Assembly (NCBI GenBank): GCA_902608115.1
Contig: CACLMT010000002.1
Span: 1-64,000, forward strand
Origin: an uncultured SAR86 cluster bacterium
GTDB lineage: Bacteria; Pseudomonadota; Gammaproteobacteria; Magnimaribacterales; D2472
Direction: 5' to 3'
Length of the DNA stretch: 64,000 bases
Part shown: one piece after another, positions 35,942-41,432 of the stretch
Position numbering within the stretch: position 1 is the first letter of the stretch
How the letters are laid out: every line of letters starts with the position of its first letter
Position numbers and translations under genes: made by a program
The notes under the pieces: model-generated
The model's input: only the letters and a program-made list of their open reading frames with translations
Told to the model about the DNA's origin: nothing
Database searches by the model: none

Positions 35942-36403
35942 ATGGATCATTTTATAGAAAAAGCTTTAAATCTTCCTCCTATTGATCAGATAGGATTCGT
36001 CGTTAAAGATATTGAGGCTTCTATCAAACTTTATGATCCTTTATTCGGTCCTTTTTCTACGATGGAACCTGATGAGATGACTTATCTTTATCGTGGGATT
36101 GAAGAACCTTGCAAAATGCGATTAGCATTTGGTAAAACTGGTAATATTGAAATTGAACTCATTGAACTCATCTCAGGCAAATCACCTCATAAAGAATTTC
36201 TAGATGCTGGGCGTGAGGGTATACATCATATCCGTTTCATAGTTGATGATTTAGATAAATCAGTTACTGCTGCAAAAAAACTTAAATTTAAGCCTATCTG
36301 GACCAGAAAATTTGCTGAAGGATTGGCTGTGGCCTATCTCGAAAGGAATAATGACCCTTTATTGATCGAGTTTTTTGAAAATCATGGGACTATGCCAGAG
36401 TAA
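35942..36403 (+). CDS. VOC-family (glyoxalase/epimerase-like) protein
   Basis: IDQIGFVVKDIEASIKLYDPLFGP; GIHHIRFIVDDLDKSV. Confidence 0.88.
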   Translation: MDHFIEKALNLPPIDQIGFVVKDIEASIKLYDPLFGPFSTMEPDEMTYLYRGIEEPCKMRLAFGKTGNIEIELIELISGKSPHKEFLDAGREGIHHIRFIVDDLDKSVTAAKKLKFKPIWTRKFAEGLAVAYLERNNDPLLIEFFENHGTMPE

Positions 36404-36428
36404 CTAGATTGGCAAAAAGAGAAGCAAA

Positions 36429-37322
36429 TTAACCATTTTTTCCTTGTGCATATTCATGCATAGGTCTAATAATTTCATCGGCGTAACGTTGCATCTGATC
36501 AATTTTTTGTTGAATAGTGGATTCCCAACCTATTGAGAATGCAAACGGAGCATTAACAGTAGCTGTCACCCCAAGATCGTAAAGCTTTTTGAGTGTATCG
36601 AGATCATGCTCTATAGTTAATCCTAATATTGTTTCAAATGGTTGATCAGATCTACCTGCTCTCTTACGATAAGTATTTAATTTATTTAATAAATCAGGGA
36701 TCTCATCAGGATGATTTCCAACACCTATAAAACCATCAGCTCTTTTTGCCATTCTCCTCAGTGCAACATCACTAGAGCCTCCCATTAGAATAGGTATACG
36801 ATTCTTTGGAGAGGGGAGAATACGCAATTTTTTAAATTGTATATATTGTCCTTGATATTCAGACCATTCACCTGACCAAAGTAATTCAATCACATCTAAA
36901 CACTCATCATATCTTTTTCCTCTTAACTTAAAATCAAGACCATAAGCTTCATATTCTTCCTGCATCCATCCCACGCCAGCTCCCAGCATAAATCTATCAT
37001 TGGAGAGAATAGCTAATGTTCCTGTAGCTTTAGCGACTTCAATAGGGTTTCTTAAAGGTAAAATGTACACTGCAGTAGAAAGTCTGAGCTTTGAAGTAAC
37101 AGCTGCCATATTAGCTAAAGTTACCCAAGGATCTGGATAATCTCTATCATCACCCATTGGTGCAGTTCCGTCTTCTGAGTAGGGATAGATAGACTTAATT
37201 GTTTTTGGAAAGAATGCATGGTCAGCATTCATAACTCCATAGAAATTATTATCTTCAGCTGCTTTTGCAATTTCTGAATATTGATCAGTTTCAGACCAAA
37301 CAAGCATTTGCCAAAATTTCAT
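36429..37322 (-). CDS. LLM-class flavin-dependent oxidoreductase
   Basis: LATLAKATGTLAILSNDRFMLGAGVGWMQEEYEAYG-type region; PILMGGSSDVALRRMAKRADGFI. Confidence 0.92.
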   Translation of the reverse strand: MKFWQMLVWSETDQYSEIAKAAEDNNFYGVMNADHAFFPKTIKSIYPYSEDGTAPMGDDRDYPDPWVTLANMAAVTSKLRLSTAVYILPLRNPIEVAKATGTLAILSNDRFMLGAGVGWMQEEYEAYGLDFKLRGKRYDECLDVIELLWSGEWSEYQGQYIQFKKLRILPSPKNRIPILMGGSSDVALRRMAKRADGFIGVGNHPDEIPDLLNKLNTYRKRAGRSDQPFETILGLTIEHDLDTLKKLYDLGVTATVNAPFAFSIGWESTIQQKIDQMQRYADEIIRPMHEYAQGKNG

Positions 37323-37386
37323 GAATTATATTTTCCTCCTGAGTAACAATATATATTATATAAATATCATGTAAAATCATCATCCA

Positions 37387-37427
37387 CAGGAGAGATGGCA
37401 GAGTGGTCGATTGCGCTACCTTGGAAA
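37387..37427. repeat. 41-bp direct repeat, left copy (att-like)
   Basis: caggagagatggcagagtggtcgattgcgctaccttggaaa identical to 41290-41330. Confidence 0.95.
37389..37427 (+). pseudogene. 5'-half fragment of tRNA-Ser(GGA); island-boundary direct repeat copy
   Basis: Exact copy of the tRNA-Ser 5' half, ending in the anticodon loop. Confidence 0.95.
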
Positions 37428-37610
37428 ACCTTATAAGCCTTTATTTTCCTGTTACGCCTAATACCAAATATCCCTTAAATACAGCCTTTCTAGGACATTC
37501 TGATATTTGCTGATAATTAGTAAAACAGGGTGATATGGGTAAGAGTTACCCCCAAAGTTACCCTCAAGAGTTTATTACCCAATTAAAAAAGGACTGAGTC
37601 TACAAAAAGA

Positions 37611-37630
37611 CTGGGATGCGAATTAACCCT
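37611..37630. repeat. 20-bp inverted repeat, left arm (ctgggatgcgaattaaccct)
   Basis: Reverse complement matches 39327-39346 with one mismatch. Confidence 0.85.
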
Positions 37631-37970
37631 TTGTATCTTCTGTAGAAGAACCTAGTTCATTACAACGATTTATGATTCCCTTCCAAGGTTCACTTGCCCA
37701 GTCTTTTGGTACTTTCAAAATTTCTGAAGTTGCTACCTCTTTAAATGCAATGTCTCCGACACATATTCTTTGTTGACATAAAGGTTCCTCAACCTGACAA
37801 TTGTTTACAAAAGCAGTCTTCCAACCTAATCGAAAATTATAATCAGATTCATCGCTGTCTATTGATTCAATATTTACATCATAATTACCAACTAAAGAAT
37901 TGAAAAGTAAATGTTTTGTTAGAAGATAAGATATTAAAAATATAATTATAGCCAATAAAAACTTTTTCAT
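37623..37970 (-). CDS. Hypothetical protein with N-terminal TM/signal (island)
   Basis: 115 aa ORF, Cys-rich C-terminal part. Confidence 0.5.
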   Translation of the reverse strand: MKKFLLAIIIFLISYLLTKHLLFNSLVGNYDVNIESIDSDESDYNFRLGWKTAFVNNCQVEEPLCQQRICVGDIAFKEVATSEILKVPKDWASEPWKGIINRCNELGSSTEDTKG

Positions 37971-37976
37971 ATGTTA

Positions 37977-38210
37977 TTACAGTCCTTCTACTCTATTACA
38001 TTTATGCATTTTCCTACTTGTAGTTCTTATGCCTCCCTGAGGACGAATGTAGGTAAAAAATCCTTTGGTCAAAATTAATCCAGTCCGTTCAAGGACGTAA
38101 CTGCTAATGGAGCTTGAGCTTCTGCATTCAACTTCTGATTTACATGAGCTCCACTCTATAAAGTATTCTCTAAAAAGTTGTCTACCACCAGCGTTCAGTT
38201 TTGCACTCAT
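37977..38210 (-). CDS. Hypothetical protein (island)
   Basis: 77 aa ORF in a tight minus-strand run. Confidence 0.4.
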   Translation of the reverse strand: MSAKLNAGGRQLFREYFIEWSSCKSEVECRSSSSISSYVLERTGLILTKGFFTYIRPQGGIRTTSRKMHKCNRVEGL

Positions 38211-38211
38211 C

Positions 38212-38565
38212 TTATTCCCTGATATCTAAAATTTTGCCCCTATAAGTACATGTGGCAACATTTTGATTAGTAGCAATACTAATAGATATAGTTCCAGTTG
38301 CACACAATCTGGCAACCGTTGCAATAAACCATTCTGGTCTGTGATTTACTCCTCCCATATAAATTGAAAGCACATCTCCCTCTTGACAGTTTCCCATCAC
38401 ATTATTGTTTGAAGGTTTCAACTGAATTTTTTTAATATTTTTTACGTGACAAAGATTTGGATGTTTTGTAACAACTAAATTATCAGAGATCTTATTATCA
38501 GTTGCTTCAAGATTTACAGTCTGAAGGGTAAAAATTCCTAATATTAAAATGTTTTTTATTTTCAT
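38212..38565 (-). CDS. Secreted hypothetical protein (island)
   Basis: 117 aa; signal peptide MKIKNILILGIFTLQTVNLEA. Confidence 0.5.
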   Translation of the reverse strand: MKIKNILILGIFTLQTVNLEATDNKISDNLVVTKHPNLCHVKNIKKIQLKPSNNNVMGNCQEGDVLSIYMGGVNHRPEWFIATVARLCATGTISISIATNQNVATCTYRGKILDIRE

Positions 38566-38713
38566 GTTAATTTCCTACTTTGAACACATAAACGATAGAT
38601 AGTTGAATATGTTTAAAGTATAAACTATAAATAGTAGTCAACAAAAAGAGGGGATAGCGAAATGAAAAACATCCTCTACAACCCTCGGTGTGTGTTTGCT
38701 ATAGTTAGAAGCT

Positions 38714-39301
38714 ATGAGAAAACTTCTACCCATTCTGTGTTTATTGATTCTGAGCTCTTGCTCACCCACACTAGAAATTCCATCTGACCAGCTGGTTAAA
38801 AGAAATGGCATTACCTACGAAATTAATTCACAAACTCCGTTTAGTGGAAGAGCAGTTTCTTACTACGAGAACGGTCAAGTAAAGTTCAAAGAAAATTATA
38901 AAGACGGAGACCTGAACGGACCTTATGAGACTTACTATGAGAATGGGCAATTAGAAATTAAAGGAAATTACAAAGATGGAGTGGCTAACGGACTTGCTGA
39001 GGTTTATTTCGAGAATGGTCAATTAAAGAGGAAAGGAAAAGCTAAAGAAGGAAACCAACACGGACTAAGTGAGACTTACTATGAGAATGGGCAATTAGAA
39101 ATTAAAGGAAATTACAAAGATGGAGAAGAAGACGGACTTTTTGAGGGTTACCACGACAACGGTCAATTACAATATAAAGGAGTCTTCAATGATGGAAAAG
39201 CGGACGGAATCATAGAGAAGTACTTCGATAACGGTCAGTTAGAGATTAAATATTGTTTTCAAGAGGGTGAAAGAGTAGACATGTCCTACTGTGAGAAATA
39301 G
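38714..39301 (+). CDS. MORN_2-type repeat lipoprotein (island)
   Basis: Lipobox ILSSCS; repeats of YYENGQLEIKGNYKDGxxxG. Confidence 0.85.
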   Translation: MRKLLPILCLLILSSCSPTLEIPSDQLVKRNGITYEINSQTPFSGRAVSYYENGQVKFKENYKDGDLNGPYETYYENGQLEIKGNYKDGVANGLAEVYFENGQLKRKGKAKEGNQHGLSETYYENGQLEIKGNYKDGEEDGLFEGYHDNGQLQYKGVFNDGKADGIIEKYFDNGQLEIKYCFQEGERVDMSYCEK

Positions 39302-39326
39302 ATAGGTTCTTCCTCATTATACACCT

Positions 39327-39346
39327 AGGGTTAATTCGCACCCCAG
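39327..39346. repeat. 20-bp inverted repeat, right arm (agggttaattcgcaccccag)
   Basis: See 37611-37630. Confidence 0.85.
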
Positions 39347-39438
39347 CATCTTTCTAGCCACAAGCCAGAAAAACCCATGTCATGTCCGTTAATGAATCGG
39401 CTTATCGGCTAGGCGTTCGTTGTATTACAGCAGGGTGC

Positions 39439-39822
39439 TTATTTGCAATTCACTATAGATAAATATTCTGAGGGCCTTTTGGTATTCAACCAAGAAATCC
39501 AACAAGAGTTTATTCCATCACCATTTTTATCCTTTGCAATAACATTCACTTTGAAGACTTTGTAAAGCTTGTTTTTATTGTCATAAACCTTAATTTCATC
39601 TCCAACAGTTATTGAAGTTTTGTTGGTTGAAACATCCCAGCTTACAGATGTTGTCAGGCCAAAAAAATTTTTTTCAGTCAGTGTCATTGCAGAGCTTCCG
39701 CTCCAGTAAGCGCTATTAGAATATGTTTCAGCAAAAGCTCCAAAGCTTATAAAGACCATCAAAACTAAGGTAAGGGTGTTTTTCATGCGTCTTTTAGAGC
39801 ACCTTGCAAGACCCTTCTCCAT
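39439..39822 (-). CDS. Secreted hypothetical protein (island)
   Basis: Real start probably at MKNTLTLVLMVFISFGAFA (ATG ~39786), a signal peptide. Confidence 0.55.
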   Translation of the reverse strand: MEKGLARCSKRRMKNTLTLVLMVFISFGAFAETYSNSAYWSGSSAMTLTEKNFFGLTTSVSWDVSTNKTSITVGDEIKVYDNKNKLYKVFKVNVIAKDKNGDGINSCWISWLNTKRPSEYLSIVNCK

Positions 39823-40438
39823 CTTGAGAGGTGCTTCCCGTAATATTTGTCTTACTTTTTATAAATCTCTTGAGTGAATATTTCATAGGTAGATTATTCA
39901 TGTCTCCACCATTAAGAATATTAGATAAATCAATGCTCCAATTCATTTGCTCTAGTTCGACACGAGTTTGATATTCATCATATTGACTTCCATAAGGCAA
40001 TTTGATTGAAAAAATATACTTCATCACATTGTCGTACCTCTGAAAACTTCCTTCTTGAACATCATCATCTAATAACTGCAGCTCATTTACTGCATCAACA
40101 GTCCTATCTAGCTGTGGATCAAAGTAATAATATGGAGTCCAGCCTTTATGATTATCAAACTTAGTGAGCCAAATATCATTGTTAAAAGCTGAAAGTACTG
40201 AGACTTTTTTTGTATCGTATTTCTCATTCTTCCCTTTCGAATTCATGCTGACATCAGCCTCTACAAAGCAATCTATATAAAATAGCTTCTCCATAGATAT
40301 TTCTTCGAATACTTCAGGCGTAATAGAGCCTGTATTAATATGGTCTATAACTTCATTAAAATAATCTTTGGCTCCATAAACTGTCAAAGATAGTAAAAAT
40401 GGAATTATCAGCAGGAGTTTATTCAAAGGGATCTCCAC
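39794..40438 (-). CDS. Secreted hypothetical protein (island)
   Basis: 214 aa; N-terminal hydrophobic LLLIIPFLLSLTVYGA. Confidence 0.55.
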   Translation of the reverse strand: MEIPLNKLLLIIPFLLSLTVYGAKDYFNEVIDHINTGSITPEVFEEISMEKLFYIDCFVEADVSMNSKGKNEKYDTKKVSVLSAFNNDIWLTKFDNHKGWTPYYYFDPQLDRTVDAVNELQLLDDDVQEGSFQRYDNVMKYIFSIKLPYGSQYDEYQTRVELEQMNWSIDLSNILNGGDMNNLPMKYSLKRFIKSKTNITGSTSQDGEGSCKVL

Positions 40439-40517
40439 TTTCTAAAACCTCATCCATATCTGCAAAAGCTTCAAAGCTTCCAAAAACTAACAAAACTAAG
40501 GCAAGGGTTTGTTTCAT
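40419..40517 (-). CDS. 32-aa secreted-peptide ORF or truncated gene (island)
   Basis: MKQTLALVLLVFGSFEAFADMDEVLESGDPFE*; signal peptide homologous to that of the 39.8-kb gene. Confidence 0.45.
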   Translation of the reverse strand: MKQTLALVLLVFGSFEAFADMDEVLESGDPFE

Positions 40518-40555
40518 ATATTAATTATTCAAGCTATCCAACCGTCTCATTCTTT

Positions 40556-40699
40556 TTAAGCATTAGCTCTTTTTAAAAGATTAGAAAGCCTGTCTATAAC
40601 TTCCTCCTTTTCATTAGGAGTAAAGTTATCTTCAACGGCATGGAGGTTATCAAATAACCTATCAACGATAACATCTTGAAGGGCGATTAGCTTTTTCAT
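40556..40699 (-). CDS. 47-aa hypothetical microprotein (island)
   Basis: MKKLIALQDVIVDRLFDNLHAVEDNFTPNEKEEVIDRLSNLLKRANA*; amphipathic-helix-like. Confidence 0.45.
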   Translation of the reverse strand: MKKLIALQDVIVDRLFDNLHAVEDNFTPNEKEEVIDRLSNLLKRANA

Positions 40700-40714
40700 A
40701 TGGAGTCGATGAAG

Positions 40715-41125
40715 CTAGAATTTATTATCTTTTTCAATAATCTTGCAGTTGCCCCTATGTTCTTGAGGACCGCGAGTAAGTTCCAAAGTTTCTCTATTGA
40801 TGTGGTAAACGGCATATTCTCGACAACCATCGTTCACGGAACAATAGGAAAGAAATAAAGTGCTACTGCTCATTTCTGTCTTTACTTTTTTGATTGTAGC
40901 CATGCCTGCACCTTCTAAATGTTCAATCCAAGCAGTTCTGTTTTCTGTAAAAGTTCCTGTCTTTGCATTCGTATCAATTGAATATTCAAACAGCCAAGGC
41001 TTGCCATCTATTGTCTTGGGTGGTGGGTTGTCACCTAAATTTTCCATTTCACACTCAAAAAAAATCTCTTTTGCAAAAGCACTTGTGGCCATAAGCATTG
41101 TTAATAGTATTGTTAGTTTTTTCAT
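40715..41125 (-). CDS. Secreted hypothetical protein (island)
   Basis: 136 aa; MKKLTILLTMLMATSAFA signal peptide, conserved-looking Cys residues. Confidence 0.6.
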   Translation of the reverse strand: MKKLTILLTMLMATSAFAKEIFFECEMENLGDNPPPKTIDGKPWLFEYSIDTNAKTGTFTENRTAWIEHLEGAGMATIKKVKTEMSSSTLFLSYCSVNDGCREYAVYHINRETLELTRGPQEHRGNCKIIEKDNKF

Positions 41126-41289
41126 AATCTCCCCTTTAAAAATTAGTATGATTAATTAAAGCATAATCTAAGAATTAAACGAAATCGCAACCTCGATGTG
41201 TGTTTGTTATAGTGAGAACCTATGCTTATTTTTGTGCTTCAATTTGTGCTCTTATAATCAACTTAAAGTACAATTCCCTTTCTTATAAG

Positions 41290-41330
41290 CAGGAGAGATG
41301 GCAGAGTGGTCGATTGCGCTACCTTGGAAA
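41290..41330. repeat. 41-bp direct repeat, right copy
   Basis: Identical to 37387-37427. Confidence 0.95.
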
Positions 41331-41381
41331 GGTAGTAACTGGGCAACTGGTTCCGGGGTTCGAATCCCCGTCTCTCCGCCA
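41292..41381 (+). tRNA. tRNA-Ser(GGA)
   Basis: GGAGAGA acceptor / TCTCTCC G CCA; loop TTGGAAA; long variable arm. Confidence 0.96.
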
Positions 41382-41432
41382 TTGGTATCATAATTTAATA
41401 CTTCAACCAATTCTTGGTAAAAGATATCTCTA

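What the first reader, a model, noticed from the sequence alone, without database searches (positions are those of the whole stretch)
37387..41381. Integrase-less island inserted in the anticodon loop of tRNA-Ser(GGA)
A 41-bp exact copy of the tRNA-Ser 5' half (37387-37427) ends precisely in the anticodon loop (TTGGAAA). The intact gene lies 3.9 kb downstream (41290-41381). The interval holds only small hypothetical/secreted ORFs. Tyrosine recombinases are known to use anticodon-loop crossovers, but here the 5' rather than the 3' half is the displaced piece, so the functional tRNA would be expressed from element-derived upstream DNA. No integrase ORF is present.
Basis: partly seen in the sequence, partly recalled or inferred. 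Interest (0 to 1): 0.75.

Follow-up and report, generated by a model that had tools for sequence, protein, structure and literature searches.

The report
Integrase-less SAR86 island in tRNA-Ser gene
A short stretch of foreign DNA has inserted into a serine tRNA gene of a SAR86 ocean bacterium and itself supplies the front half and the upstream DNA of the working tRNA gene; it belongs to a family of such insertions in SAR86, most of which no longer carry the enzyme needed to insert.

Summary
In detail: an exact 41-bp copy of the tRNA-Ser(GGA) 5' half (37387-37427) ends at the last base of the 7-nt anticodon loop. The only intact gene (41292-41381) lies 3.9 kb downstream, with no integrase between. 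The host is SAR86. In the same genus G010 has the same arrangement with different cargo but the same ends; G012 is its empty site (flanks 97-98% identical, overlapping by exactly the 39-bp tRNA half). Other cases sit at tRNA-Ser(GGA) and tRNA-Ser(TGA) in two genera. G096/G093 give a second before/after pair, in which a 15-kb element with an intact tyrosine integrase next to the tRNA inserted beside an integrase-less one. Of ten delimited insertions one has an intact integrase, three keep only its C-terminal end and six have none. All bring a new 5' half plus upstream DNA, a polarity reported for about 4% of catalogued tRNA islands. Most share paired end repeats and a conserved ~90-bp left-end module. 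The window's left and right repeats differ, so it may be a deletion fusion of two tandem elements, now immobile. Best reading: a relict, integrase-less (CIME-like) member of a 5'-half-targeting SAR86 island family. Mobilisation in trans is untested.

The parts
37372..37377 (+). -10-like TAAAAT of the original tRNA-Ser promoter, now upstream of the orphan half
   Evidence: Same hexamer at a similar distance in empty sites of relatives (gTAAAATgc..GGAGAG); no promoter assay
37387..37427 (+). Displaced 5' half of tRNA-Ser(GGA), left att junction
   Evidence: 41/41 identical to 41290-41330
37428..37569 (+). Left end of the element, with paired repeats GTTACCC at 37545 and 37557 (12-bp spacing)
   Evidence: First ~100 bp conserved in G010 (95% over 137 bp); tandem 7-mers
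37570..37659 (+). Conserved left-end module (ATTACC..CTCTAG..CGAAT.ACCC..AGAACCTA)
   Evidence: cmsearch E 2e-19 with model R1, which this copy helped to build; present at all other left ends examined except that of G089
37623..37970 (-). Cargo ORF, 115 aa, hydrophobic N-terminus
   Evidence: no Pfam/PHROG/PADLOC hit
37977..38210 (-). Cargo ORF, 77 aa
   Evidence: no family hit
38212..38565 (-). Cargo ORF, 117 aa, signal-peptide-like N-terminus
   Evidence: no family hit
38656..38719 (+). Promoter-like module (CCTCGGTGTGTGTTTGCTATAGT..ATG) in front of the MORN gene
   Evidence: within f1 (108 genomes) this motif occurs only in element-bearing genomes
38714..39301 (+). MORN_2-repeat lipoprotein-like cargo gene, 195 aa
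   Evidence: PF07661 E 1.9e-29
39298..39363 (-). Inverted, truncated second copy of the left-end module
   Evidence: model R1 E 5e-8; this copy was not used to build the model
39439..39822 (-). Cargo ORF, 127 aa, signal-peptide-like
   Evidence: no significant family hit
39794..40438 (-). Cargo ORF, 214 aa
   Evidence: no family hit
40715..41125 (-). Cargo ORF, 136 aa, signal-peptide-like
   Evidence: no Pfam hit
41161..41227 (+). Second promoter-like module next to the right end
41232..41250 (+). Paired right-end repeats TTGTGCT (41232, 41244), same as G010's at both of its ends
41269..41274 (+). TACAAT, -10-like hexamer supplied by the element in front of the restored tRNA
   Evidence: Right-end DNA shared with G010 and G014, not with empty sites
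41290..41381 (+). Restored tRNA-Ser(GGA), right att junction
   Evidence: ARAGORN 41292-41381

Best explanation
The interval is an integrated island of a SAR86 family of tyrosine-recombinase elements that use tRNA-Ser genes as attB. Recombination takes place in the 7-bp anticodon loop. The element's attP carries the tRNA 5' half and a promoter-bearing upstream segment, so on insertion the original promoter and 5' half stay on the left and the working tRNA gene is rebuilt on the right from element 5' half plus host 3' half (shown by before/after pairs in relatives; inferred for the window). The insertion was presumably catalysed by an integrase of the type still present in the G093 element, encoded next to the right end, whose gene has since been lost here (inferred). 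The mismatched paired repeats at the two ends suggest that the present 3.9 kb is a deletion fusion of two tandem elements (inferred). What remains is a CIME-like, integrase-less relict carrying small, mostly secreted or membrane-type proteins. It would move only if a matching integrase were supplied in trans.
For: 41-bp duplication ending at the loop. G010 has the same site and ends with different cargo; G012 is its empty site, flanks 97.4% and 97.9% identical, alignments meeting with a 39-bp overlap at the loop. G096 to G093: element 1 identical at 99.4% over 5.9 kb; the 15-kb element 2, with an intact 374-aa-frame PF00589 integrase next to the tRNA, lies between it and the tRNA with a 40-bp overlap. 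Integrase C-terminal remnants abut the tRNA-side end in G014, G102 and G105. The same paired repeats occur at both ends in five elements, 0 of 2000 shuffles each. The left-end module is in 25 of 204 SAR86-order genomes; a strict pattern for it gave four hits (three in elements already delimited, the fourth led to the G096 element), with none for the reversed pattern. Tandem arrays in G093 and G009. Deletion scars with element right ends in G005, G006, G013 and G014.
Against: No close relative of the window strain itself with an empty site was found; the upstream neighbour (LLM oxidoreductase) was found there only in this genome. No integrase matching this exact tRNA-Ser(GGA) specificity and repeat type was found in an intact element; the intact one targets tRNA-Ser(TGA). 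The window's left and right repeats differ, so the island as it stands may not be a single element. No excision, circle or promoter activity was measured.
Confidence: 0.87

Rival explanations
1. A still-mobile non-autonomous element: it keeps working att sites and is excised and integrated by an integrase supplied in trans by a co-resident or incoming full element, as MITEs use a transposase.
For: Integrase-free members are frequent and G010's keeps matching repeats at both ends. An autonomous and an integrase-less element sit side by side in G093 with the same left end.
Against: The window's own end repeats do not match each other, G093 element 1, G096 and G089 show no right-hand repeats, and no non-Xer integrase is in the 78%-complete genome.
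Confidence: 0.2
2. A local tandem duplication of the tRNA-Ser region followed by decay of one copy, with unrelated DNA in between.
For: Such duplications occur; the left half keeps its own promoter-like sequence.
Against: The duplication stops at the anticodon loop in this and the comparable loci, the interval's ends are conserved between loci with different cargo, and precise empty/occupied pairs exist.
Confidence: 0.03
3. Assembly chimera: two contigs joined wrongly at the repeated 41 bp.
For: The genome is a draft in 37 contigs and the repeat is short.
Against: Independent assemblies of other SAR86 genomes show the same architecture with the same ends at the same tRNA (G010 = AG-313-A10).
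Confidence: 0.03
4. A phage satellite (VEIME-, PICMI- or tycheposon-type) whose integrase and packaging genes were lost or are provided by a helper phage.
For: Small size, no structural genes, streamlined marine host; the fuller G093 element carries a RepA-like AAA_25 ATPase, HTH_17 and endonuclease VII. The conserved left-end module could be a packaging or transfer signal.
Against: No significant phage-family hit with an assigned function for the cargo tested, no DNA match in phage records; scans of viral contigs for the right end, the module and the integrase returned no answer.
Confidence: 0.15

Closest known systems
tRNA-targeted genomic islands of tyrosine integrases (Islander definition, PMC4383910)
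   Same: tDNA plus displaced fragment of it in the same orientation bounding the island; anticodon-loop site
   Different: Islander requires an integrase gene inside; here none. The displaced fragment is the 5' end: 159 of 3919 Islander islands against 3760 with a 3' fragment
CIME (cis-mobilizable element; PMC5704250, PMC3146451)
   Same: att junctions kept, integration genes lost, tandem accretion with integrase-bearing elements at the same kind of site
   Different: No conjugative parent known; polarity is 5' half; end repeats of the window mismatch
pTN3-like archaeal elements (PMC8371274)
   Same: attB is the 5' half of a tRNA gene and the restored tRNA takes its promoter from the element; said to be seldom met in bacteria
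   Different: pTN3 integrases are suicidal (gene split by integration); the G093 integrase is intact after integration and the window has none
Tycheposons of marine Prochlorococcus and Methylophilaceae (PMC10872708 cites them; primary paper not held)
   Same: tRNA-bounded cargo islands with a tyrosine recombinase in streamlined marine bacteria; niche cargo in larger relatives
   Different: In the Methylophilaceae description the island starts with the tRNA and the recombinase follows; here the integrase lies 5' of the tRNA. Homology not tested
tRNA-dependent lysogeny phages (PMC10865867)
   Same: Element must ensure that the split tRNA gene is replaced
   Different: Those phages carry a separate whole tRNA gene; here the split gene itself is rebuilt

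Membership tests
tRNA-integrated tyrosine-recombinase island | Intact tRNA gene and same-orientation fragment ending at a known crossover sublocation | tested here: met
tRNA-integrated tyrosine-recombinase island | Fragment on the side to which integration displaces it (5' fragment upstream) | tested here: met
   same in the delimited relatives
tRNA-integrated tyrosine-recombinase island | Integrase gene inside the island | tested here: not met
tRNA-integrated tyrosine-recombinase island | Empty site in relatives with precise junction | tested here: met
   For the same tRNA: G010/G012. For the window's own cargo only at genus level
CIME | Both att junctions kept, integration and transfer genes absent | tested here: met
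CIME | Accretion with an integrase-bearing element at the same site | tested here: inconclusive
   Shown for relatives at tRNA-Ser(TGA); not for the window locus
CIME | Demonstrated mobilisation | not testable with these tools
   needs excision or transfer assay
pTN3-type 5'-half integration | Restored tRNA is fronted by element-derived upstream DNA | tested here: met
   Sequence only:
pTN3-type 5'-half integration | Integrase gene split by integration | tested here: not met
   G093 integrase intact; none in window
Tycheposon | Tyrosine recombinase next to the complete tRNA | tested here: not met
   absent in window; present in G093 element 2 on the 5' side
Phage satellite | Packaging, capsid or helper-response genes, or presence in virions | tested here: inconclusive
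   no PHROG with an assigned function among significant hits; viral-contig scans for the right end, module and integrase failed

The most novel reading that the evidence does not exclude
SAR86 has a distinct class of largely non-autonomous islands, defined by a conserved ~90-bp left-end module and 5'-half tRNA targeting, that lose or share integrases and move catabolic cargo (a probable alginate/uronate locus of 15 kb, a glucan locus, fatty-acid genes) as well as small cassettes. The class is passed over by island finders that require an integrase. The left-end module would be a signal recognised by a helper (recombination, packaging or transfer).
Probability: 0.3. Interest if true: 0.78.

Novelty: new variant of a known kind. 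Interest (0 to 1): 0.6.

Why it matters
SAR86 is an abundant surface-ocean lineage with small genomes and little described mobile DNA. A recurrent insertion hotspot in two tRNA-Ser genes, with natural before/after pairs, tandem accretion and cargo that includes whole polysaccharide-use loci, gives a concrete route for niche genes to move in such genomes. It is also a bacterial case in which the element supplies the 5' half and upstream region of the tRNA gene, a polarity seen in about 4% of catalogued islands. Because most members lack an integrase, standard island finders reject them.

Tried and rejected
XerC/XerD as the integrase: only Xer-type recombinases are in the genome, but the duplicated site is a tRNA anticodon loop, not dif-like; not pursued. 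G020:C7 529-aa integrase (Arm-DNA-bind_3): on a short phage-like contig with no tRNA half; set aside. Viral-contig searches for the right end, the left module and the integrase got no answer from the server; one earlier exact-pattern scan with the left end found nothing. Integron-like reading of the repeated modules: the 5'-type modules sit at gene starts like promoters and no integron integrase was seen; not pursued further. Promoter and terminator consensus scans were no better than shuffles. Composition gives no clear island signal. Primary papers on tycheposons and on tRNA sublocations (Williams 2002) are not held. Half searches near weaker module hits in G074 and G026 found none.

Full report
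OBSERVATION. The 41-bp copy is exact (37387-37427 = 41290-41330) and stops at the last base of the anticodon loop. ARAGORN finds one intact tRNA-Ser(GGA), 41292-41381. The interval holds seven small ORFs; only the MORN_2 protein has a Pfam family. There is no integrase, not even a remnant recognisable with relatives' integrases, and the whole 78%-complete genome has only two Xer-type PF00589 genes.

SAME SITE IN RELATIVES. The host is SAR86: the matching relative G010 is the record 'uncultured SAR86 cluster bacterium isolate AG-313-A10'. Among 27 genomes of the genus, most that show the locus have a single tRNA-Ser(GGA) behind an ABC permease gene. G010 has the half, a 2.4-kb interval with other small ORFs and no integrase, then the intact tRNA. 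Its left flank plus half matches G012 at 97.4% over 1044 bp and its tRNA plus right flank at 97.9% over 1000 bp. The two alignments overlap by exactly 39 bp in G012, which is the empty site. The element ends are shared between window and G010 (95% over 137 bp at the left; right end) while the cargo is not. G005, G006, G013 and G014 keep only a right end in front of the tRNA, without a half: deletion scars.

THE FAMILY. G105 (another genus) has a 1.3-kb insertion at tRNA-Ser(GGA) whose tRNA-side end carries the last residues of a tyrosine recombinase. At tRNA-Ser(TGA) the same layout occurs in G014 (1.95 kb, integrase C-terminal remnant) and G102 (2.1 kb, remnant). G089 has a 14.9-kb integrase-less element with a TonB receptor, FCD-type GntR regulator, chondroitinase-B-like lyase, heparinase/alginate lyase, cupin, SDR, PfkB kinase and UxuA, probably an alginate/uronate locus. 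G096 has one 5.9-kb element with a response regulator and histidine kinase. G009 has 16.1 kb between two halves. G093 has two in tandem: the G096 element (99.4% identical over 5.9 kb) and, between it and the tRNA, a 15-kb element with sugar-use genes, AAA_25 ATPase, HTH_17, endonuclease VII and an intact integrase ending about 110 bp before the tRNA. Against G096 this is a second before/after pair, with a 40-bp overlap. Counting G093 element 1 and its G096 counterpart separately, ten insertions are delimited: one intact integrase, three remnants, six without (window, G010, G089, G009 element 1, G093 element 1, G096). For G089 and the G093/G096 element the absence rests on ORF inspection and similarity to relatives' integrases, not on a genome-wide PF00589 search.

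ENDS. In five elements the same 7-mer or longer unit occurs as a pair spaced 11-12 bp at both ends (0 of 2000 shuffles each), the layout of arm-type integrase sites. In the window the left pair (GTTACCC) and right pair (TTGTGCT, as in G010) sit at the expected places but differ. G093 element 1, G096 and G089 lack the right pair. Inside the left pair lies a conserved module of about 90 bp (A1). A sequence model of it finds copies in 25 of 204 genomes of the order; where the left side is readable most strong hits follow a tRNA-Ser(TGA) or (GGA) 5' half, and one (G056) follows a tRNA-Ala(GGC) 5' half. Several other hits (for example G026, G074, G130) had no recognisable half. The strict pattern gave four hits and none for the reversed control; three lay in elements already delimited and the fourth led to the G096 element. 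The window has a second, inverted, truncated copy (39298-39363, E 5e-8) and two related promoter-like modules (38656-38719, 41161-41227); that motif is confined to element-bearing genomes within the family.

MECHANISM. Shown: insertion in the anticodon loop; the original 5' half and upstream region left behind; the working tRNA rebuilt from an element-derived 5' half and upstream DNA; recurrence at two tRNA-Ser genes; tandem accretion; loss of the integrase gene in most members. Inferred: catalysis by the G093-type integrase, arm function of the repeats, promoter function of the -10-like hexamers (TACAAT 41269, TAAAAT 37372), fusion of two elements in the window, present immobility. Not known: whether integrase-less members are still moved in trans, and what the left-end module does.

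KNOWN WORK. Islander counts 159 islands with a 5' fragment against 3760 with a 3' fragment and rejects candidates without an integrase (PMC4383910). A review states that tRNAs restored with an element promoter are characteristic of archaeal pTN3-type integrases and seldom met in bacteria (PMC8371274). CIMEs and accretion are established (PMC5704250, PMC3146451). So the parts are known kinds; the combination as a recurrent family in SAR86 is a new variant. The full-text searches did not bring up a description of it; that is not proof of absence.

Noticed in passing
window 35942-37322: Glyoxalase-like and LLM-oxidoreductase genes stand where relatives have an ABC transporter; the LLM protein's best matches in the genus are only about 40% identical.
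   Followed up: partly
window 41382-41432: Relatives have about 1 kb with two genes between tRNA-Ser and DUF885; in the window only 50 bp, so a deletion here or an insertion there.
   Followed up: no
L209 (G089:C2:161000-179900): 15-kb integrase-less element that looks like a complete alginate/uronate utilisation locus.
   Followed up: partly
L180+L151 (G093:C4:21774-42795): Tandem pair of 5'-half elements, the tRNA-proximal one with intact integrase, RepA-like ATPase and endonuclease VII.
   Followed up: yes
L262 (G056:C29): Left-end module behind a tRNA-Ala(GGC) 5' half: the family may use other tRNA genes.
   Followed up: partly
L179 (G005:C2:3000-22000): Element scar upstream of tRNA-Ser(TGA) fused to GMC-oxidoreductase-like and transporter-like genes.
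   Followed up: no
L110 (G020:C7): Short phage-like contig with a 529-aa integrase (Arm-DNA-bind_3) and small secreted proteins resembling island cargo.
   Followed up: partly
L003 (G000:C18:15710-15919): MORN-repeat homologue of the island's MORN protein elsewhere in the same genome.
   Followed up: no
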